Shown here: one piece after another, positions 36,528 through 46,606 of the stretch | Layout: every line of letters begins with the position of its first letter | Numbering within the stretch: position 1 is the first letter of the stretch | From: Plantactinospora sp. BC1 | GTDB taxonomy: Bacteria > Actinomycetota > Actinomycetes > Mycobacteriales > Micromonosporaceae | NCBI RefSeq assembly: GCF_003030345.1 | Contig: NZ_CP028158.1 | Span: forward strand, 2,542,001 to 2,606,000 | Reading direction: 5' to 3' | DNA: 64,000 nucleotides | Made by a program: the position numbers and the translations under genes | Notes under the pieces: generated by a model | Database searches by the model: none | Told to the model about the DNA's origin: nothing | The model's input: the letters and a program-made list of their open reading frames with translations, nothing else

Positions 36528-36995
36528 TCAGTCGAGCAGCAGCGTGTAGCCCAGGGTCAGCACGATCAGGGTCGCCGGGATCGCCAGCACGTGCGGGGCG
36601 ACGAGGGTACGCCAGTATCCCGGCACCTCGTCCCGGTAGTGCGCCACGCCCATCTCCAGCGGCCGTACGTCGGGCGCCTCGGCACCGTCGAGCAGCCGGC
36701 GGGCGACCGCCGCGTGCAGCCGCCGGAAGAGGCGCTCCTGGCGTAGGTAGTAGGCGTCCAGTCCCCAGAAGATCACGGCGGGCGCCAGTGCCACCACCGC
36801 GAGCAGGCGCAGGTTCTGGCCCTGTGTGCCGAGCACGGTGAAGACGATGGAGACCAGCGTGACGGACCAGCCCCGGATCACGAACGAGTGCTGGGACATC
36901 CGGGCGATCGTCGCCTGCACGTCGGCGAGGTGGCGCAGCCGGAGTTCGTCCTCGTCCGCCAAGTACGCCTCCTGAGGGTCGCCGGCACGCTCCAC
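36528..36995 (-). CDS. Hypothetical membrane protein divergent from XRE regulator
   Basis: A 155-residue protein. A charged N-terminal helix (DEDELRLRHLADVQATIARM) leads into SQHSFVIRGWSVTLVSIVFTVLG, then a second helix (LLAVVALAPAVIFWGLDAYYL), a basic cytoplasmic segment (RQERLFRRLHAAVARRLL) and a final helix at the C-terminus. I have no family name. It shares its promoter region with the XRE-TPR regulator and may belong to the adjacent TIR system. Confidence 0.75.
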   Translation of the reverse strand: MERAGDPQEAYLADEDELRLRHLADVQATIARMSQHSFVIRGWSVTLVSIVFTVLGTQGQNLRLLAVVALAPAVIFWGLDAYYLRQERLFRRLHAAVARRLLDGAEAPDVRPLEMGVAHYRDEVPGYWRTLVAPHVLAIPATLIVLTLGYTLLLD

Positions 36996-37020
36996 CTGGT
37001 GCGCCGGTCCGGGGTGTCAT

Positions 37021-37052
37021 CACAGTAGCGGAGATCCACAGTAGCGGAGATC
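37021..37052. repeat. Perfect 16-bp tandem duplication in divergent promoter
   Basis: CACAGTAGCGGAGATC is repeated exactly at 37021-37036 and 37037-37052, with CACA continuing after. It lies just upstream of the membrane protein gene (minus), between it and the XRE regulator. Confidence 0.85.
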
Positions 37053-37115
37053 CACATCGGTGGTGTGAACAGACGTCGCCTTCGTGGGCGGCGACGTTTG
37101 TGCTCGGCAGATAGT

Positions 37116-37144
37116 GTTGTCCACATCCTTTCGGGCCGGACAAT
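37116..37144. promoter_or_regulatory. Inverted repeat TTGTCC-N15-GGACAA before the XRE regulator
   Basis: Arms at 37117-37122 and 37138-37143 lie directly upstream of the regulator start. TTGTCC and GACAAT (37139-37144, 16 bp spacing) could also serve as -35 and -10 boxes, so a bound dimer would block transcription. The same motif with longer arms precedes the TIR gene. Confidence 0.55.
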
Positions 37145-37153
37145 GGAAACGCG

Positions 37154-38473
37154 GTGGTGGCCATGGTGGGCGAGGTGCCTGGTCCGATAACGTTCGCCGG
37201 AGAACTCCGCCGGCGGCGAACCGGGCAGGGATTCACCCTCACGGAGTTGGCCGGACGGATCAACTACAGCAAGAGCCATCTGAGCAAGATCGAGTCGGGC
37301 GTCAAACGGCCCAGTGTGGACCTGGCACGTCGATGCGATCAGGAACTGAATGCCGATGGTGCCCTCGCCCGTCTGGTCGACGCACCGTCGTACGATCCGC
37401 CGCCGGAGACAGCGACTCCGAGCGAGGTCTGGGTGATGCGGATGAATGCGGACGGCAGTGGTGAATTCACGGCTTTCGACCGGCGTACGGTGTTGACCGC
37501 CGCAGCCTCCATGATGAGTTGGGCGATTATTCCGGCACGGGGGCGCCCGCAGGCGGCGGATTTCGCCCTGCCGACCTTCCGGACCTGGCTCGACCAGATG
37601 CGTCTGCTCGGCCAGGGCGTCGACCCGGCGACGATGATTCACATGCTGGTCGGGGCCACCAACAGCATCCGGGCACTCGCCGCCGAGGCGCGGGGCGAGA
37701 CCCGGGTCGCCGCGCTGCGCCTGGCGGCCCGGTTCGCGGAATACACCGGCTGGATGGCCCAGGAGCAGGGCGACGAGGGTGCGGCGTGGTGGTGGACCCA
37801 GCGCGCCGTCGACCTCGCCACGAGCGGCGGGGACCACGAACTGCCCACCTACGCCCTGGTCCGCCGGGCGGAGCTGGCGCTCTACCGGGACGACTCCCGC
37901 TCGGTGGTGGCCCTCGCCGAGCAGGCGGAGCAGCGGGCGTCCAGCAGCCGGGTCGCCGCCTTCGCCGCCCAGCGCGCCGCCCAGGGGTACGCCCTCGCCG
38001 GTGACGATCGCGCCTGTCGTCAGGCGCTCGACCGGGCGGCGACGCTGATGACGCACGCGGCCGGCGAGACGAGTGCCGAACCGGCGCTGGGCAGCCTCAC
38101 CATGCGCGACCCGGTCGCCTTCACCACCGGCTGGTGCCTGTTCGACCTCGGGCGACCGGCCGAGTCCGCCGAGATCCTCGGTGCCGAACTCGACCGGCTC
38201 CCCGCCACCATGCACCGGACCCGCTCCCGGTACGGTGCCCGCCTCGCACTCGCGCTCGCCAACAGCGGGGAACTCGAACGGGCCTGCGAGGTCCTCCGGT
38301 CGGTGCTGGAGCAGGCCTCTACTGTCGACTCCGCGACTGTCCGGCACGACCTGCGGCACCTCAGCCGAACGTTGCGGCGCTGGCGTACCGAAGGTGCGGT
38401 CAACGAGGCCATGCCGCTCCTTCTGGACGTCCTTCGCAGAGACAATCAGCCACCTTCGGACTACCGGTTGTAA
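37154..38473 (+). CDS. XRE-type regulator with TPR-like C-terminus
   Basis: A 439-residue protein. Residues 10-65 are an XRE helix-turn-helix (FAGELRRRRTGQGFTLTELA, GRINYSKSHLSKIESGVKRP). A spacer with FDRRTVLTAAASM follows, then residues 160-430 are helical TPR-like repeats (for example ALRLAARFAEYTGWMAQEQG, YALVRRAELALYRDDSRS). This layout is common in actinobacterial regulators controlling neighbouring operons, the TPR part sensing a peptide or protein. GTG 37154 is taken as a near-leaderless start; ATG 37163 is an alternative. It likely controls itself and the downstream TIR operon. Confidence 0.87.
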   Translation: MVAMVGEVPGPITFAGELRRRRTGQGFTLTELAGRINYSKSHLSKIESGVKRPSVDLARRCDQELNADGALARLVDAPSYDPPPETATPSEVWVMRMNADGSGEFTAFDRRTVLTAAASMMSWAIIPARGRPQAADFALPTFRTWLDQMRLLGQGVDPATMIHMLVGATNSIRALAAEARGETRVAALRLAARFAEYTGWMAQEQGDEGAAWWWTQRAVDLATSGGDHELPTYALVRRAELALYRDDSRSVVALAEQAEQRASSSRVAAFAAQRAAQGYALAGDDRACRQALDRAATLMTHAAGETSAEPALGSLTMRDPVAFTTGWCLFDLGRPAESAEILGAELDRLPATMHRTRSRYGARLALALANSGELERACEVLRSVLEQASTVDSATVRHDLRHLSRTLRRWRTEGAVNEAMPLLLDVLRRDNQPPSDYRL

Positions 38474-38548
38474 TACGGCGGAGAGGTCGCCCCTGCCGAC
38501 CGGTTCGTGGCCGGGTCGTCCCGGCCACGTCCGCTTCCGCTCGTTCGC

Positions 38549-38578
38549 CGTTGTCCGTCCACAAGGGTGAGGACAACG
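38549..38578. promoter_or_regulatory. Inverted repeat CGTTGTCC-N14-GGACAACG before the TIR operon
   Basis: Perfect 8-bp arms (38549-38556 and 38571-38578) separated by 14 bp lie in the 248-bp leader between the XRE regulator and the TIR gene. The core matches the repeat before the regulator gene. No other structure is evident in this leader, which is AT-richer than flanking DNA. Confidence 0.6.
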
Positions 38579-38721
38579 TATTGCTAGTCCCATGCCGCAC
38601 TGCCAGTCTGAAATGCGGCGGACGGCGTCGGTCCGCTAGTTGTGCATGACGACGCGCAGTTGCGTGCATCCATCGGCAATAGGCGCGACGTTCCCGACCG
38701 CTTCTGCCGAAAGGCGACCCG

Positions 38722-39339
38722 ATGACCGGGATCTTCATCAACTATCGAACCGGTGACGAAACGTTCGCCGCACCGGTGATCGACGAGAGGCTCCGCAGGG
38801 AATTTGGCGACGACCGCGTTTTCCGGGATTCCCGTTCACTCGAACCGGGTCTCGATTTCCCGCCCGAGATCTGGTACCACCTGAAGCGCAGTACGGTGTT
38901 GCTCGCGCTTATCGGCCCCCGATGGCTCACCCTCGCGGACGACTCCGGAAACCGTCGGATCGACCATCCGAAGGACTACGTGCGGCGGGAGATCCGCCGG
39001 GCGCTCAAGCGGGACATCCGAGTCATTCCCGTACTGCTCGACGGGGGGCGGATGCCGACCGAGGAGGAACTGCCGCACGACATCAGGCGACTGGCCCGCC
39101 GTCAGTTCCTGCCGCTGCACACCCGCAACCTGCTGGGCGACCTCCAGCGGCTGGTCGACGAACTGGGCCGGATCGTGCCGCGCGTCGGCTCGGGTCCGGG
39201 CGGCGCGGCCGGCACCGCCGCCGCACCCGGCCAGGCGGCTCCGGCGGCACCGGCGAACGGCCGGCACAGCGCCGTGCACATCACCGGGGACGGTCAGGTC
39301 TTCAACGGGCCGATCACCGGCGGGGACAGCAATGGCTGA
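38722..39339 (+). CDS. TIR-domain protein with GPITGG tail
   Basis: A 205-residue protein. Residues 3-145 are a TIR domain: GIFINYRTGDE (box 1), DRVFRDSRSLEPGLDFPPEI, LLALIGPRWLTL (box 2) and DYVRREIRRALKRDIRVIPV, where E90 is the candidate catalytic Glu of NAD-cleaving TIRs. A Gly/Ala/Pro linker follows, and residues 185-203 (VHITGDGQVFNGPITGGDS) form a beta-like tail. The same tail motif lies in the next protein, pointing to direct association. First gene of a four-gene coupled operon. It probably degrades NAD or makes a cyclic ADP-ribose signal. Confidence 0.88.
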   Translation: MTGIFINYRTGDETFAAPVIDERLRREFGDDRVFRDSRSLEPGLDFPPEIWYHLKRSTVLLALIGPRWLTLADDSGNRRIDHPKDYVRREIRRALKRDIRVIPVLLDGGRMPTEEELPHDIRRLARRQFLPLHTRNLLGDLQRLVDELGRIVPRVGSGPGGAAGTAAAPGQAAPAAPANGRHSAVHITGDGQVFNGPITGGDSNG

Positions 39340-41668
39340 GCAGGCCGAACGGCCCGCGAAACCCTCACAGACTGCCCCGGACGTCTCCGGCAAGGCGTCC
39401 GGGGCGCCAGCCCAGGAAGGCCGGTCGCCCGGCCCGGCCGGTACGCCCGGTGGATCCGGCGCGGACCCGAAGTCCGCGAGCGACGCCACCGGGTCTGCCG
39501 GCGACGCCGCCGAGGGGCTCGCCGCGAGCCTCGGCGGCGCCAGGTCGGCGGCGAAGTCGCCGGGCGAGGGGGCCGGCGACGAGGAGCGGACCTGGCAGCA
39601 GCAGGAGATCCGCAACACCCTGGCGGCGGCGCTCAGTTCCTTCGGCAGCCGCTCCTCCGGCGTCATCGTCGTCGGCGACGGGCACACCTTCAGCGGCCCG
39701 ATCACCGGCGGGGACAGTCGGACCGGCGCGGACCGGTCCAGGGCGGTACTGCGCACCTTCACCGCCGGGTTCGTCGCCGGTACGGCCCGGGTGTACGTCT
39801 CGCCGGACGGCTACGTCGACCTCGCCGAGGCCCTGGAGGACAGCCCGGTACTGCTGATCAGGGCGCGTCGGCGCTGGGGCAGTACGACGACCGCCGTCCG
39901 GCTGCTCTCCGAGATGGAGACCGTGCACGAACTGCGGTTCGCCGACGCGCTCGCCGCACTGCCGATCGAGGACCTGCCCGAGGGGTGCGGCTTCGTCATC
40001 GAACGGCTGAGCAGGAACCAGCTCGGCACCCTGTACGCCCGGGAGCTGCCGATGCTGGAGGAGCGGCTGACTCGGCGCCGGGGCAGACTGGTGGTGATCG
40101 TCGACGACTCGGCGCGCGCTGCCGACCACGCGGTCGACCGGCTCGCCCGGAAGATCGCCGCACCGCCCGCGGCGCTGGAGCTGGTCACCAGCCACCTGGC
40201 GGAACTGCTCGGTTCGGATGCCGAGGCGGAACGGCTGTTGGCGGACGAGAACGTCGGTACCCGGCTGGCCGACATCGCACCGGAGTCGTTCGACGCGCCG
40301 CAGCTGGTGGAACTGGCGAAGGACCTCGCCGAGGTGGCCTCGGGTACGGGCACCGTGGCGGACGCCATGGCGCGGTTCGAGGACCGTTCCCGCCAGGACG
40401 TCGAGGACTGGTACGACGAACTCGGCAGCTTCGACGAGCGGGCGCTGGTCGTCGCGATCGCCGTACTGGACCGGATGTCCTTCGACGCGGTCTCCCGGGC
40501 CGCCACCCTGCTGGAACAGGCGTGGCGGGAGGACGAGGCCGGCAACGGCCAGGCGCCGCCACGGTCCCGGCAGACCCGGCGCAACCGGCTGCGGGCGGCC
40601 CGGGCCCGGATCGACACCGAGGTACGCCGCACCCGGTACGGCTGGGCGGAGCTGGAGGTCGTCTCCTTCGTCGACCCGAACTATCCGGCCCGGTTGCTGC
40701 ACCACCTGTGGCACGAGCACTACTACGACCGGGCTCTGCTGCTGGACTGGCTGCGCCGGGTCGCCGGCGACGTGGAGGGTGCGGTCGGGATCCGGGCGGC
40801 GACGGCGATCGGCTACCTGAGCCAGTTCGCCTTCGACACCATCCGCCGGGACATCGTGACGCCGTGGGCCGGCAGTGGCCGGGGCAACGAACGGGAGTGG
40901 GCGGTGGCCGCCCTCGCGCTGCCCGCCCGGGACCCGGCGACGGCGAGCCGGGTCATCCGGCTGGTGCTGGACTGGGCGGACCGGGACGGTCTCGCGCTCC
41001 GGCTGTCGGCCGCCCGGGCGCTGGGCGCCAGCGTCGGGGCGGTGCTGGACGGCGGCCCCGACGAGCACCTCGCCGAGTTGGCCGACGGCGCCGAGACGCC
41101 GCTCCAGCTCGCCATCGGGGACAGCATCGCCGAGCTGATGGCCGAGGCGACGCTCGACCGGCAGACCGAACTGCTCCGCCTGCTGGAGACCTGGTCGATG
41201 GAGAGTCGTTCGGGCCGGCTCTACGCGGGCGTGGTGGGCTTCCTCGAAGTCGCCGCCACGCTCTGGACCAACCAGCAGACCCCGGACGGCGACGTGGCCT
41301 GGCCGACCCTGCTCTGGCTGGCCGGCGAGGGCGGGCAGCCGGTGACGGTCCCGGACGACGGCGTCGTCCCGGCGGAGGGCCGGTCCGAGGCCGGGCGGAT
41401 CGTCGCCCGGCTCTGGGGGCGGGCGCTGGTCGCCCCCGGTGTGGACACCGCCGTGCACAACGTGCTGCGCAGGTGGGCGCAGGCGGCCGAGGAGGCCCCG
41501 GCGCTGCGTCCGGCCCTGGTCGCCCTGCTGATGGAGGCCGCGGTCACCGACCGGCAGCGGCGACTGCTGACCGCGCACGCCAACCGGTGGCGCGATCCCA
41601 AGCCGCTGGCGCCGGACCTGGCGGCCAGATTGCTGAACGTACTCAGTCGAAGGGTTGGTGTGTGGTGA
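39332..41668 (+). CDS. Large STAND-like protein with degenerate P-loop, TIR-operon partner
   Basis: A 778-residue protein whose ATG overlaps the TIR stop by 8 bp. Residues 1-85 are disordered; 110-129 carry VIVVGDGHTFSGPITGGDS, matching the TIR tail. Residues 170-260 resemble the start of a P-loop NTPase: SPVLLIRARRRWGSTTTAVR sits where Walker A should be but lacks the Gly-Lys pair, and RLVVIVDDS is Walker B-like. Residues 300-778 are helical, HEAT/TPR-like (FDERALVVAIAVLDRMSFDA, AIGYLSQFAFDTIRRDIV), typical of sensor repeats. It likely senses a trigger and relays it to the TIR protein. Confidence 0.75.
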   Translation: MAEQAERPAKPSQTAPDVSGKASGAPAQEGRSPGPAGTPGGSGADPKSASDATGSAGDAAEGLAASLGGARSAAKSPGEGAGDEERTWQQQEIRNTLAAALSSFGSRSSGVIVVGDGHTFSGPITGGDSRTGADRSRAVLRTFTAGFVAGTARVYVSPDGYVDLAEALEDSPVLLIRARRRWGSTTTAVRLLSEMETVHELRFADALAALPIEDLPEGCGFVIERLSRNQLGTLYARELPMLEERLTRRRGRLVVIVDDSARAADHAVDRLARKIAAPPAALELVTSHLAELLGSDAEAERLLADENVGTRLADIAPESFDAPQLVELAKDLAEVASGTGTVADAMARFEDRSRQDVEDWYDELGSFDERALVVAIAVLDRMSFDAVSRAATLLEQAWREDEAGNGQAPPRSRQTRRNRLRAARARIDTEVRRTRYGWAELEVVSFVDPNYPARLLHHLWHEHYYDRALLLDWLRRVAGDVEGAVGIRAATAIGYLSQFAFDTIRRDIVTPWAGSGRGNEREWAVAALALPARDPATASRVIRLVLDWADRDGLALRLSAARALGASVGAVLDGGPDEHLAELADGAETPLQLAIGDSIAELMAEATLDRQTELLRLLETWSMESRSGRLYAGVVGFLEVAATLWTNQQTPDGDVAWPTLLWLAGEGGQPVTVPDDGVVPAEGRSEAGRIVARLWGRALVAPGVDTAVHNVLRRWAQAAEEAPALRPALVALLMEAAVTDRQRRLLTAHANRWRDPKPLAPDLAARLLNVLSRRVGVW

Positions 41669-42645
41669 TCCGTGGCCCCGTCCTCGAACGAAAAGAACTC
41701 CGCCGGCTGCCGTTCCAGCGGCGGCCGATCGCCGAGCCGGGTACCCGGCTGGTGTTCCAGATGTCCAGCGGCCAGTTGGTGGCGCCGACGCACCCGTACA
41801 CCACCGGGGACGTCTGGTGGCGCGGGCCGCGAGCGGTCTACGTGGTCTACACGTCGCCGCAGCCGGCGTACTTCGCCTGCACGCTGCCGTGCGCCGGTGA
41901 CACGCTCTTCTTCGACGCGGCGGTGCGGTTCTCGTTCGCCGTCGCCGATCCGGTGAGTGTGGTCCGGGAGCAGGTTTCCGACCCCGTCGCCGACTGCCGG
42001 CGCTATCTGATGGAACCGCTGCGCGCCGTCACCCGCAGGTTCACGGCGATGCAGCCGGAGGCGGCCGAACGGGCGATCCGGTCGACGCTGGCGGACGCGC
42101 CGACCGACCTCGCCAACGGGCTGCGGATCAGCGAGCTGCGCTGCGAGCTGACCATCAACGCCGAGCAGGGGGGAATCGCCAAGGATCTGGAGATCCAGAC
42201 GTTGCGGCAGCAGTTGGCGATGCGTACCGAGACGGACCGGATCGCCCTGACCAAGCTGAACCAGGACGCCGATCTGGCCCGGCACCAGGAGCGGGCGGCG
42301 TTCCACGAGCGGCTGCTCTCCGGCGGTGGTGCGGCGTTGGCCGGCAGCATCGTGGCGCAGGATCCGACGAAGGCGACCGAGGCCGCCAACTTCATGATCT
42401 CGCTCTACGACCAGGACCAGAAGCTGGCCGTGGAGGCGCTCAAGGTGATCATGGACGGCGACCAGATCCGGCTCGGCGAGATGGACGGCGCCGTGCAGGC
42501 GGTGGTCGAACGCTTCAAGGGGATGATCACGCAGGGCGGCGGCCAGTTGATGCCGAACCGGGCCGTCGGCGAGTTGTCCAACGCGCCGGCCCGGGACGGC
42601 GAGGCCGGGTCACCGCCGGGCGGCGAAGCCGGGGAGCAGCCGTGA
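41665..42645 (+). CDS. SPFH/band-7-like protein with coiled coil
   Basis: A 326-residue protein starting at GTG 41665, which overlaps the previous stop (GTGA). Residues 5-150 are beta-rich and then FDAAVRFSFAVADPVSVVRE and ERAIRSTLADAPTDLANGLR match the SPFH (stomatin/prohibitin) core order. Residues 160-260 are a long coiled coil (LEIQTLRQQLAMRTETDRIA, DQKLAVEALKVIM), as in flotillins. No membrane segment is visible, so membrane attachment may come from the next gene. The tail is Gly/Pro-rich. Such proteins form oligomeric rings or microdomains and could scaffold TIR activation. Confidence 0.72.
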   Translation: MIRGPVLERKELRRLPFQRRPIAEPGTRLVFQMSSGQLVAPTHPYTTGDVWWRGPRAVYVVYTSPQPAYFACTLPCAGDTLFFDAAVRFSFAVADPVSVVREQVSDPVADCRRYLMEPLRAVTRRFTAMQPEAAERAIRSTLADAPTDLANGLRISELRCELTINAEQGGIAKDLEIQTLRQQLAMRTETDRIALTKLNQDADLARHQERAAFHERLLSGGGAALAGSIVAQDPTKATEAANFMISLYDQDQKLAVEALKVIMDGDQIRLGEMDGAVQAVVERFKGMITQGGGQLMPNRAVGELSNAPARDGEAGSPPGGEAGEQP

Positions 42646-43160
42646 ACGGAGCCCGGGGCTTTCCGATGGAGATTCTCGACACGCTGGCCGGGTGGATCCG
42701 GGACCTCCCGCTGATTCCCGTCGAGATTCGCGGAGTGGTCTGGTTCCCCCTGCTCGCCGTGCTGGTGATCGGCGGCCTGCTGCTGCTGGTACGCCGGGTG
42801 CTGCCCTGGCTGGGGCGGCTCGTCGGCCGCGCGCTGGGCGTACTGGCGGTCGCGGTCGGCGCCGTCCTGCTCCTGCCCGACCTGCTGGTCTCGTACCTCT
42901 ACCGGCGCACCGGCGGTGCCCCGCCGGGACTCGCCTACGGCTACGGCGACCTGGTGGCGGAGCTGGCGATCGGGCTGACCCGGGTCTCCGGGCTGGCCGC
43001 ACCGGCCTTCGCCCGCGCGGCCCGGACACCCGCGGTCTTCGTGATCGTTCTCGGTGCGCTCTGGCTCTGGACCTGGAACCACGGCTCCTGCCCCGGCGAG
43101 CAGGCGGTGGACACCTGCGTACGCCCGGTCGTGGAGTGGACCCGGGCCTTCGAGTCCTGA
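42642..43160 (+). CDS. Membrane protein, last gene of TIR operon
   Basis: A 172-residue protein starting at GTG 42642 (GTGA overlap). Three membrane helices are seen: VVWFPLLAVLVIGGLLLLVR, LVGRALGVLAVAVGAVLLLP and TPAVFVIVLGALWLWTW. The N-terminal MEILDTLAGWIRDLPLIP may be an amphipathic helix. The last 30 residues contain two Cys (SCPGEQAVDTC), probably extracytoplasmic. It could anchor the SPFH-like partner or act as the membrane effector; no family is recognised. Confidence 0.72.
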   Translation: MNGARGFPMEILDTLAGWIRDLPLIPVEIRGVVWFPLLAVLVIGGLLLLVRRVLPWLGRLVGRALGVLAVAVGAVLLLPDLLVSYLYRRTGGAPPGLAYGYGDLVAELAIGLTRVSGLAAPAFARAARTPAVFVIVLGALWLWTWNHGSCPGEQAVDTCVRPVVEWTRAFES

Positions 43161-44347: not shown

Positions 44348-46606
44348 TCACCGCTGCGCGGCGTACGCGGCCAGCCAGGCGACCTGACCCGGATCCAGCG
44401 ACGGCCGGACCCGGGACCGGGCCGTCGCCACATGCCCGGCGTGCACCGTGCTCGCCTCCAGCGACTCCCGCATCGCCGCCAGCGCCGCCTCCCGGACCAG
44501 CGCCGCACAGTCCGCGGCGGAGAAGCCGTCCAACTCCTCGGCCAGCGCCGCCAACTCCACCTCCTCGGCCAGCGGCACCGACCGGGCCGCCGCCCTCAGG
44601 ATCTCGGCCCGGGCGGCGGCGTCCGGCGGCGGCACGTAGACCAGCCGCTCCAACCGGCCCGGCCGCAGCAGCGCCGGATCCACCAGATCCGGCCGGTTCG
44701 TCGCACCGACCACCACCACGTTGCGCAGCGTCTCCACCCCGTCCAGCTCGGTCAGCAGCGCCGCGACCACCCGGTCGGTGGTACCGCCGTCGGTGGCCTG
44801 GCCGCGCACCGGGGCCAGCGCGTCGACCTCGTCGAGGAAGACCAGCGTCGGTGCCGCCTCCCGGGCCCGGCGGAACAGCTCCCGGACCGCCCGCTCGCTC
44901 TCGCCGACCCACTTCGAGAGCAGCTCCGCGCCCTTCACCGACAGCACGTTCGCCCGACCGGTACCGGCCAGCGCGGTGACCAGGAACGTCTTGCCGCACC
45001 CCGGCGGGCCGTAGAGGAGTACGCCGCGCGGCGGCTGCACGCCGAGCCGGGCGAAGGTGTCCGGATAGTTCAGCGGCCAGAGCACCGACTCGGTCAGCAC
45101 CTCCTTGACCTCGGCCATGTCCCCGACGTCGTCCAGGGTCACGTCGGCCAGCTCCAGCACCGACGACTCGGCCATCGAGGTCGGCCGGACCACCTCCAGC
45201 GCCGCCGAGAAGTCCGCCATCGCCACCGTCGGGGCGGTCGCCTCCTTCTGTCGCAGCGCGGCGCGTACCCCGGCCTCCCGGGCCAGCGCGGCCAGGTCGG
45301 CGGCGACGAATCCGGGCGTACGGCCGGCCACCTCGTCCAGCCGGACGTCCTCGTCCAGCGGCATCCCCCGGGTCAGCACCGTCAACTGCTCCCGGCGCAG
45401 CGCGGCGTCCGGCAGCGGGATCGCGATCTCCAGCGAGAGCAGGTCCGGCGCGCGCAGCGCCGGGTCCACCGACTCGGGCCGGCTGGTCGTGCAGACGACG
45501 GCGGCACCGGCGCGTACCGTCTCGGCCAGCAACTGCCGGAAGACCGTACCCACCGGACCGGGCGTGTCGCGCGGCGCCAGCGCCTCGACGTCGGCGACCA
45601 GCAGCACCGCGGGCGGCGCGTCCCGGACCGAGGCGGCGGCCTCGCGGAGCCGCCGGGCGGCGGCGTCGTTGGTCAGCGCGGCGACCTCCGGCGCCCAGAT
45701 CGCGGCGAACCGGGCCCCCACCGACCGGGAGACCGCCCGGACCAGCGCCGACTTGCCGGACCCGGCCGGGCCGGTCAGGAGTACGCCGAGCGAGACCGTC
45801 GTGCCCAGCCGGCCCAGCACCTCCCGGTGGTGGAAGCCGAGGTCGAGCAGCTCGGTCAACTCCTCGGCCTGGGTACGCAGCCCGGGCAGCTCGTCCAGGC
45901 CGGGCGCCGGATCCGGCATCGCCCCGGTCGCCGCCCGCGGACTCTGGCCGCCGGTGACCGCCCGCAGCTCGGCCGAGGTCGTGCCGTGCGTGGCGTGACC
46001 GTCCCGCCAGCCGACCACACTGTCCATGGTCACCAGCACCGAATCGGCCTCGCCGCCGGTGTCGAGCGGCCCGGTCGAGTCGTTCGCCGACTCCGCCGAG
46101 GTCACCGTCAGCAGGGTGCTGGTCCAGGCGTAGCCGACGGTGTTCGCCAGGCTGCGCCGGGCCGCCTCGACCAGGGTCCGCACCGCCGCGTCGGGCAGCA
46201 CGTCCTGGGGGAGCAGGGAGACGTCGTCACCGGCGGTCACCATCTTGCCGAGCAGGGCGAGGCGGAGCATCTCCGGCGAGACCACGGCGACGATCTCCGG
46301 CGGGCCGGTCAGCACCACCCGGCGGGCCGCCACCACCGGGATCGGTGCGACGGTGACCTGGCTGCCGTCGCGTACCCCGAGGTTGCCGAGGACCAGGTCG
46401 TCGGCGTAGAGCAGGGCGCGGCTCGCCGACGGCTCCGCCCGGGCCACGATCCCGGCGGTGCTCCGCCGCCCGGTGAGGCGTACCGGAGCGCCGGGGTGCA
46501 GACCCAGCGCGGTCAGCACCTCCGGATGCAGCCGGACGATGCCCCGGCGGGCGTCCAGCGCGGCCGGACGCAGGCTGGCGGTGAGCGTGAGATCCCGACC
46601 CGTCAC
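44348..46606 (-). CDS. cpa: CDC48-like AAA+ ATPase of actinobacteria (Cpa)
   Basis: A 752-residue protein starting at GTG 46606. Residues 1-180 resemble the CDC48 N domain (double-psi barrel; VRLHPEVLTALGLHPGAPVR). The first AAA domain has Walker A GPAGSGKSA (279-287) but its Walker B reads VLLVADVEAL, without the usual DE. The second has GPPGCGKTF (about 530) and LVFLDEVDALAP, both intact, plus GATNRPDLVDPALLRPGRLE. This matches Cpa, reported as an alternative regulatory particle of the actinobacterial 20S proteasome that unfolds substrates. Confidence 0.9.
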   Translation of the reverse strand: MTGRDLTLTASLRPAALDARRGIVRLHPEVLTALGLHPGAPVRLTGRRSTAGIVARAEPSASRALLYADDLVLGNLGVRDGSQVTVAPIPVVAARRVVLTGPPEIVAVVSPEMLRLALLGKMVTAGDDVSLLPQDVLPDAAVRTLVEAARRSLANTVGYAWTSTLLTVTSAESANDSTGPLDTGGEADSVLVTMDSVVGWRDGHATHGTTSAELRAVTGGQSPRAATGAMPDPAPGLDELPGLRTQAEELTELLDLGFHHREVLGRLGTTVSLGVLLTGPAGSGKSALVRAVSRSVGARFAAIWAPEVAALTNDAAARRLREAAASVRDAPPAVLLVADVEALAPRDTPGPVGTVFRQLLAETVRAGAAVVCTTSRPESVDPALRAPDLLSLEIAIPLPDAALRREQLTVLTRGMPLDEDVRLDEVAGRTPGFVAADLAALAREAGVRAALRQKEATAPTVAMADFSAALEVVRPTSMAESSVLELADVTLDDVGDMAEVKEVLTESVLWPLNYPDTFARLGVQPPRGVLLYGPPGCGKTFLVTALAGTGRANVLSVKGAELLSKWVGESERAVRELFRRAREAAPTLVFLDEVDALAPVRGQATDGGTTDRVVAALLTELDGVETLRNVVVVGATNRPDLVDPALLRPGRLERLVYVPPPDAAARAEILRAAARSVPLAEEVELAALAEELDGFSAADCAALVREAALAAMRESLEASTVHAGHVATARSRVRPSLDPGQVAWLAAYAAQR

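What the first reader, a model, noticed from the sequence alone, without database searches (positions are those of the whole stretch)
36528..43160. Undescribed TIR - STAND-like - SPFH - membrane protein operon with its own regulator
Seen: four genes at 38722-43160 are joined by 4- or 8-bp overlaps, preceded by an XRE-TPR regulator and a divergent membrane protein. Known: TIR domains are NAD hydrolases or signal makers in Thoeris and other immune systems; STAND proteins are sensors; SPFH proteins form membrane scaffolds. Inference: sensor, NADase and membrane scaffold form one defence or stress-death system, inducible through the regulator. I do not know of a named system with this gene set.
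Basis: partly seen in the sequence, partly recalled or inferred. Interest (0 to 1): 0.88.

Follow-up and report, generated by a model that had tools for sequence, protein, structure and literature searches.

The report
Matched-tail enzyme–receptor signalling operon
A four-gene operon of a high-GC, large-genome bacterium (probably an actinomycete) appears to wire a swappable alarm enzyme to an immune-type receptor through a short matched protein tail that differs from operon to operon, next to a membrane-scaffold protein; it has not been tested in the laboratory.

Summary
Four co-directional genes (38722-43160) overlap by 8, 4 and 4 bp: TIR enzyme, degenerate STAND-like receptor, SPFH protein, small membrane protein. 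The unit recurs with other flanks. The TIR C-terminal tail and the receptor's disordered N-terminus carry nearly the same ~20-residue motif (VHITGDGQVFNGPITGGDS / VIVVGDGHTFSGPITGGDS). Across 45 non-redundant loci, tails match their own receptor far better than others (z = 18, 0 of 20000 permutations); a batch fetched after the idea was formed gives z = 14; four controls are not significant. The enzyme is exchangeable: TIR, a class III cyclase-like protein (commonest) or a purine phosphorylase, with at least four TIR changes on a 62-row receptor tree. The SPFH fold is supported by AlphaFold/Foldseek although Pfam does not see it; elsewhere one protein fuses TIR, SPFH and a CHAT protease. Best reading: a STAND receptor recruits and clusters an NAD+/nucleotide enzyme by homotypic, probably amyloid-type, motif templating, on an SPFH scaffold. 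This is a new variant of NLR amyloid signalosomes and EAD-coupled conflict systems. Amyloid formation, NADase activity and defence are inferred, not shown.

The parts
36528..36995 (-). 155-aa protein with three hydrophobic segments, PADLOC candidate family PDC-M50A; possible accessory membrane component
   Evidence: one copy in G000 and one in G343, within about 2 kb of this operon in both with one gene between; no match in G333, G341, G054
37154..38473 (+). XRE-TPR regulator, NsdA family
   Evidence: relative over 200 bits in 4 of 9 TIR-type loci and 0 of 59 other loci
38722..39339 (+). TIR enzyme (205 aa) with linker and C-terminal motif
   Evidence: TIR_2 1.3e-10; profile of 9 TIR proteins matches SARM1, E 7.7e-13
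38989..38991 (+). codon of Glu90, invariant in all 9 TIR proteins aligned (window included), in line with the glutamate of the SARM1 segment DWVHKE
39268..39330 (+). effector-side copy of the shared motif SAVHITGDGQVFNGPITGGDS
39332..41668 (+). degenerate STAND-like receptor (778 aa): disordered N-terminus, NTPase-like region, HEAT-like repeats
39656..39718 (+). receptor-side copy of the shared motif SGVIVVGDGHTFSGPITGGDS, inside a stretch (residues 105-135) predicted at pLDDT below 50
39860..39895 (+). degenerate P-loop RARRRWGSTTTA
   Evidence: alignment
41665..42645 (+). SPFH protein (326 aa): SPFH domain plus long helical stalk, no predicted transmembrane helix
42642..43160 (+). 172-aa membrane protein, probable partner or anchor of the SPFH protein

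Best explanation
The operon encodes a receptor-controlled enzyme signalosome. A degenerate STAND/HEAT receptor senses an unknown trigger and oligomerises. Its disordered N-terminus carries a short Gly/Asn/beta-residue motif that pairs homotypically, most likely by amyloid-type cross-beta templating, with the nearly identical motif at the C-terminal tail of the TIR enzyme made from the overlapping upstream gene. Clustering of the TIR domains switches on NAD+ cleavage (or signal production). The SPFH protein, held at the membrane by the small membrane protein, forms a ring or cage that carries the complex. The result is growth arrest or death of the affected cell or hyphal compartment, in phage defence or stress. 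Shown by computation: conserved gene set and order, exchange of the enzyme, locus-specific motif matching, predicted SPFH fold, position of the TIR glutamate. Inferred: oligomerisation, amyloid nature, NADase activity, scaffold role, trigger and outcome.
For: Cognate tail/N-terminus matching: 16 loci, one near-duplicate dropped, 0 of 20000 permutations; 45 non-redundant of 55 pairs, z 18.1, and z 7.5 when permuted only within receptor clades; later batch alone, 31 non-redundant of 39 pairs, z 14.2. Controls with other parts of the same proteins z 0.1, 0.7, 0.4, 1.5. In the window, identity is held at protein level: 14 of 21 residues identical, 6 of those 14 by synonymous codons. Matched cores of the 28 pairs scoring 45 or more are enriched in G, N, H, I, V, F, Y and poor in P, E, K, D against the neighbouring linker (the scoring matrix itself favours aromatic, His and Gly matches); the receptor motif of the window lies in a disordered stretch. 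Same architecture as bacterial amyloid signalosomes: motif C-terminal on the effector, N-terminal on the NLR, adjacent or overlapping genes (PMC7889193, passages). TIR, cyclase and PNP alternate in the window's own clade of 6 (100/100 support), with at least 4 TIR changes on the tree. SPFH fold; a fusion of TIR, SPFH and CHAT in one ORF elsewhere links TIR and SPFH directly (L169). SARM1-like catalytic position.
Against: No known amyloid family was matched: the window motifs do not resemble a published BASS3 peptide beyond chance (tail 1133 of 5000 shuffles as good; receptor copy 261 of 5000), and only 2 of 55 tails reach p<0.01. Cognate tails ranked first in only 20 of 45 loci and in the top three in 27 of 45; they beat the nearest relative's receptor in 35 of 45; some pairs, such as L024, L025 and L098, show no match. 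The motif is absent from the SPFH protein in the 34 loci tested, and the TIR-SPFH fusion locus has no receptor match, so SPFH is not tied to the receptor by sequence. The receptor P-loop lacks the Walker A lysine in the window and in most relatives. No experiment exists.
Confidence: 0.55

Rival explanations
1. Folded-adaptor (EAD-like) coupling: the shared segment is a small conventional binding module or a docking peptide, not an amyloid. Enzyme and receptor still pair homotypically, as in EAD-coupled ternary systems.
For: Kaur et al. describe adjacent genes with more closely related EAD copies and the same enzymes (cyclase, phosphorylase, TIR) (passages). Cognate matching does not tell amyloid from docking.
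Against: The matched cores are short and Gly/Asn-rich and predicted disordered in the window receptor, whereas EADs are described as small domains with helical or mixed structure.
Confidence: 0.25
2. Second-messenger system: TIR (or cyclase, or PNP) makes a nucleotide signal that opens a membrane effector (the 172-aa protein or the PDC-M50A protein), as in Thoeris or Pycsar; the receptor only regulates the enzyme.
For: The enzyme classes act on nucleotides. The 3'-end membrane genes of L118 and L119 match PycTM in Pfam (1.3e-8, 9.5e-9), and L118 also in PADLOC (1.2e-17). PDC-M50A gene linked in two genomes.
Against: The 172-aa family stays with TIR (G000, G333, G343), with cyclase (G341) and with SPFH alone (8 loci), so it does not follow the enzyme's product.
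Confidence: 0.3
3. The unit is a developmental or stress regulator (for example of hyphal differentiation), not an immune system.
For: The linked regulator is of the NsdA family, known in actinomycetes for control of differentiation (recalled). Receptor matches in 50 of 111 genomes of the family, which is frequent for a defence system.
Against: Enzyme and 3'-end genes vary between related loci, tails diversify strongly, and matches are patchy: 4 of 100 phylum and 12 of 98 class genomes.
Confidence: 0.25
4. The motif similarity is a by-product of shared low-complexity composition or of recent duplication.
For: Both stretches are Gly-rich.
Against: Permutation across loci keeps composition and gives 0 of 20000; synonymous differences at 6 of 14 identical residues argue against recent duplication in the window (other loci were not checked at codon level).
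Confidence: 0.03

Closest known systems
Bacterial NLR amyloid signalosomes (BASS motif pairs, Dyrka et al. 2020; seen through passages of the review PMC7889193 and of PMC8086366)
   Same: Neighbouring or overlapping genes; short motif at the effector C-terminus and at the receptor N-terminus; pairs also detected there by local alignment; TIR among the less frequent effectors
   Different: Receptor is a degenerate nSTAND3/HEAT-like protein without a NACHT or NB-ARC match; commonest partner is cyclase-like, not Bell; SPFH follows; no significant likeness to one BASS3 peptide; BASS1-10 profiles not on hand
EAD-coupled ternary conflict systems with VMAP or iSTAND (Kaur et al. 2020, PMC7159879; 2021, PMC8195603; passages)
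   Same: Same interchangeable enzymes (cyclase, phosphorylase, TIR), homotypic coupling between adjacent genes; vWA, PP2C and weakly kinase-like genes in long relatives; Band-7-like domains noted there in vWA proteins
   Different: No MoxR match among the scanned genes (5 of L003, 3 of L021, 2 of L024); coupling by a short disordered motif instead of an EAD; SPFH as a core gene
Thoeris and other TIR systems
   Same: TIR enzyme with SARM1-like catalytic glutamate position
   Different: No SIR2-SLOG ThsA match; weak ThsB scores only (2.1e-4)
Pycsar (PycC cyclase with PycTM)
   Same: In relatives (L118, L119) a class III cyclase-like gene (profile) and a PycTM gene flank the same unit
   Different: Receptor and SPFH-like gene between them; the window has TIR and no PycTM match
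SPFH proteins (stomatin, prohibitin, flotillin, HflK/C, vault protein)
   Same: Predicted fold, domain plus helical stalk
   Different: 11-19% identity in the 33 best matches, not seen by Pfam, no own transmembrane helix

Membership tests
[quoted passage not shown]
   8-bp overlap in the window; 32 of 39 second-batch pairs overlap by 1-13 bp, 22 of them by 4 bp, with starts chosen by rule
NLR amyloid signalosome (BASS) | Same short motif at effector C-terminus and receptor N-terminus | tested here: met
   window and the set as a whole; not every single locus
NLR amyloid signalosome (BASS) | Motif belongs to BASS families 1-10 | tested here: inconclusive
   Only one BASS3 peptide could be compared, not significant; profiles not held
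NLR amyloid signalosome (BASS) | Receptor is an NLR (NACHT or NB-ARC NTPase plus repeats) | tested here: inconclusive
   No NACHT or NB-ARC match; nSTAND3 in 6 of 40 and HEAT_2 in 14 of 40 relatives; fold matches are helical repeats first, NLRC4 and AVAST5 at E about 2e-3, all with low TM-scores
NLR amyloid signalosome (BASS) | Motif forms amyloid | not testable with these tools
   needs peptide experiments
MoxR-vWA ternary (VMAP/iSTAND) system | MoxR ATPase and vWA protein as core | tested here: not met
   neither among the six window genes; L003, L021 and L024 have vWA, PP2C and weakly kinase-like genes and no MoxR match in those scanned
Thoeris | ThsA with SIR2-SLOG | tested here: not met
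   no such match among the six genes
TIR NADase | TIR fold with catalytic glutamate position | tested here: met
   by sequence:
TIR NADase | NAD+ hydrolysis | not testable with these tools
   enzyme assay needed
SPFH family | SPFH (Band 7) fold | tested here: met
   predicted model; 33 of 33 Foldseek matches at E<=0.001 come from SPFH-family or vault entries
SPFH family | Pfam Band_7 sequence match | tested here: not met
   0 of 16 members
STAND NTPase | Intact Walker A lysine | tested here: not met
   window S184; R in most of 40 relatives, K in a few such as L021 and L087
Anti-phage defence system | Protection against phage | not testable with these tools
   no experiment

The most novel reading that the evidence does not exclude
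A large, so far unnamed family of bacterial amyloid-coded immune signalosomes: each locus carries its own private templating motif, which insulates parallel systems from each other, while enzymes (TIR, cyclase, PNP and others) are swapped behind a conserved degenerate-STAND receptor mounted on an SPFH membrane cage.
Probability: 0.35. Interest if true: 0.88.

Novelty: new variant of a known kind. Interest (0 to 1): 0.73.

Why it matters
It would give bacterial amyloid signalling a tractable, widespread model outside the Bell-domain cases, with dozens of naturally diversified cognate motif pairs for testing specificity of cross-seeding. It would also bring SPFH scaffolds, the fold of prohibitins, stomatins and vaults, into bacterial immune-type signalling, and it ties TIR, cyclase and phosphorylase enzymes to one receptor type by a short code that can be swapped and tested directly.

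Tried and rejected
Single-protein scan of genome contigs gave 14 pattern hits and no relative. A motif in the SPFH protein was tested and rejected (34 loci, z -0.2 to -2.1). Sequence profiles of the SPFH family found no SPFH protein in the PDB (annexins, E 0.45 or worse); the fold search settled it. The NTPase-region profile found nothing significant in the PDB (best E 0.034). BASS3 membership by sequence: not supported. A single origin of TIR in these loci: TIR needs 6 changes on the tree, at least 4 forced. The long-branch rows L084, L114, L116 and L117 are placed unsurely. The genome-size link (9 of 20 genomes of 6 Mb or more, own genome included, against 1 of 78 smaller ones with E<1e-10; counted by hand, test) is confounded with phylogeny. 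The regulator count (4 of 9 against 0 of 59, over 200 bits) was also made by hand and typed into; L117 and L106 have weaker matches (46 and 19 bits), flank lengths vary, and loci with unknown partner count as non-TIR.

Rows dropped: L027 (near copy of L018) and in the regulator count; 7 of 46 second-batch loci without a clear partner or at a contig edge (L079, L083, L087, L096, L108, L109, L118); 10 of 55 pairs above 55% receptor identity and 8 of 39. SPFH downstream: 16 of 16 first-batch loci by position and alignment, used to build the profile and so not independent; 28 of 46 second-batch loci with a profile match at E<1e-3 in the next gene. In the tree all partners not otherwise identified were labelled cyclase-like; those rows had cyclase-profile matches or were in the profile.

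Full report
Observation. Gene 1 is TIR_2. Gene 2 has no Pfam match of its own; among 40 relatives 6 match nSTAND3 and 14 HEAT_2. Its AlphaFold model (pLDDT 83) has a disordered N-terminus, an alpha/beta region and a helical repeat; Foldseek finds helical-repeat proteins first (an engineered protein, PP2A scaffold; 8 matches at E<=0.001) and, at E 2e-3 to 4e-3, NLRC4, AVAST5 and NLRP9, all with low TM-scores. The P-loop lysine is missing. Gene 3 has no Pfam match, but its model (pLDDT 86) matches entries of prohibitin, HflK/C, erlin, stomatin, vault and flotillin, 33 of 33 matches at E<=0.001, with low whole-chain TM-scores. Gene 4 has two hydrophobic segments.

Recurrence. Receptor matches at E<=0.001, own genome included: 50 of 111 family genomes, 12 of 98 class genomes, 4 of 100 phylum genomes, some of them weak. 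I examined the window and 15 loci first, then 46 more, then 20 chosen by the SPFH gene. In the first 16 the upstream gene is TIR (5), phosphorylase (1) or of the cyclase-like family (10), and the gene downstream is SPFH-like; in the 46, 39 gave a usable upstream partner and 28 an SPFH match in the next gene. Near-orthologues of the whole operon: G333 (L153) and G343 (L157) have TIR, receptor, SPFH and the 172-aa family; G341 (L154) has the same with a cyclase-like gene in place of TIR; G054 (L020) has a phosphorylase, receptor, SPFH and a 2-helix protein of similar size that does not match gene 4 significantly. Flanking genes of L153, L154, L157 and L158 differ. Of the 20 SPFH loci, 7 hold the receptor (L153, L154, L157, L158, L168, L170, L171), 8 (L159-L164, L166, L167) hold an SPFH-membrane pair without receptor, four (L155, L156, L165, L172) hold SPFH without a profile match to the other genes, and one (L169) is a fusion.

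A fusion. In L169 (G311) one ORF of 914 aa holds TIR (residues 28-178, 152 bits), SPFH (186-438, 151 bits) and a CHAT protease domain (Pfam 3.4e-19), with no receptor match at the locus. This is direct evidence that TIR and SPFH work together in conflict-type proteins, and that the receptor can be dispensed with.

Enzymes. The commonest upstream protein is a family whose profile matches class III cyclases (PDB 3mr7, E 5.6e-6), though Pfam sees no cyclase. TIR occurs in 10 of 62 tree rows and needs 6 changes, at least 4 forced by well-supported branches; in the window's clade of 6 (100/100) there are four TIR, one PNP and one cyclase-like. The TIR proteins of L003, L024 and L085 also match the cyclase profile in their second half (66, 64, 35 bits). 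Other partners: BTAD regulator L106, DUF4145 L114. The TIR Glu90 is invariant in 9 of 9 aligned TIR proteins and lines up with the glutamate of SARM1 DWVHKE, which I recall to be catalytic.

The matched motif. TIR residues 183-203 and receptor residues 109-129 share 14 of 21 residues. I formed the idea on the first 16 loci and tested it there (15 after dropping a near copy): summed own-partner score 799 against a permuted mean of 528, 0 of 20000. On all 55 pairs reduced to 45, z 18.1, and z 7.5 within receptor clades. On the later batch alone (31 non-redundant of 39) z 14.2, 16 of 31 rank first. Controls with other parts of the same proteins: z 0.1, 0.7, 0.4, 1.5; SPFH carries no motif. Against the idea: only 20 of 45 rank first overall, and several loci show no match. 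In the own-genome paralogue L003 the best local match lies in the linker, so its motif is unclear and insulation within this genome is not shown. Matched cores are rich in G, N, H, I, V, F, Y, partly an effect of the scoring matrix. This is the architecture of bacterial amyloid signalosomes (PMC7889193, passages); likeness to one BASS3 peptide is not significant.

Accessories. A close relative of the XRE gene lies in 4 of 9 TIR-type loci and 0 of 59 others (Fisher p 1.5e-4, hand count). The divergent PDC-M50A gene is single-copy in G000 and G343 and within about 2 kb of the operon in both, with one gene between (XRE in the window, a HIT-domain gene in L157); no match in G333, G341 and G054. 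Gene 4 has one match per genome, beside SPFH, in G000, G333, G341 and G343. Because gene 4 stays while the enzyme changes, I read it as SPFH partner, not as reader of the enzyme's product. In other loci the 3' gene is PycTM, DUF4407, OmpA or PP2C, and the L003, L021 and L024 type adds vWA (weak to borderline), PP2C and weakly kinase-like genes.

Known or new. Seven literature searches showed, in the 10-20 titles listed by each, no paper that describes this gene set. Dyrka et al. 2020 itself is not held; I know it through PMC7889193 (passages) and PMC8086366 (passages and section 13); PMC12261475 and PMC10907252 were seen in passages. Kaur et al. 2020 and 2021 (passages) describe the parallel EAD principle with the same enzyme types. 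PMC13174449 (abstract and outline) reports TIR-like NADases in a phage-defence protein and in the vault, a possible parallel to TIR plus SPFH here. Hence: new variant of a known kind.

Noticed in passing
L169:3727-6471 (-), G311: One ORF fuses TIR, SPFH and a CHAT protease domain, without a receptor at the locus.
   Followed up: partly
L159-L164, L166, L167: A two-gene SPFH plus small-membrane-protein pair without receptor or enzyme, possibly a separate or ancestral module.
   Followed up: partly
L118:3797-4303, L119:3812-4270: PycTM (Pycsar effector) gene follows receptor operons of the cyclase type; L122 has a similar gene by eye, not scanned.
   Followed up: partly
L003:3804-12270 (own paralogue, G000:C1:218000-237000): Second operon in the same genome: TIR with a cyclase-like second half, receptor, SPFH with a weak vWA match, vWA (weak), PP2C, weakly kinase-like gene.
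   Followed up: partly
L106:8268-9254, L114:7833-8756: Upstream partner is a BTAD-type transcription regulator with a well-matched tail (L106) or a DUF4145 protein (L114), so the tail may also recruit other proteins.
   Followed up: no
window 36528-36995 and L157:3997-4419: PDC-M50A membrane gene, single copy and near the operon in two genomes; may be a further membrane effector.
   Followed up: partly
L081, L082, L110-L113: Receptor operons followed by large membrane genes; the two scanned (L081, L110) are DUF4407.
   Followed up: partly
window 44348-46606 (-): Double AAA ATPase with CDC48 N-domain close to the operon, apparently unrelated.
   Followed up: no
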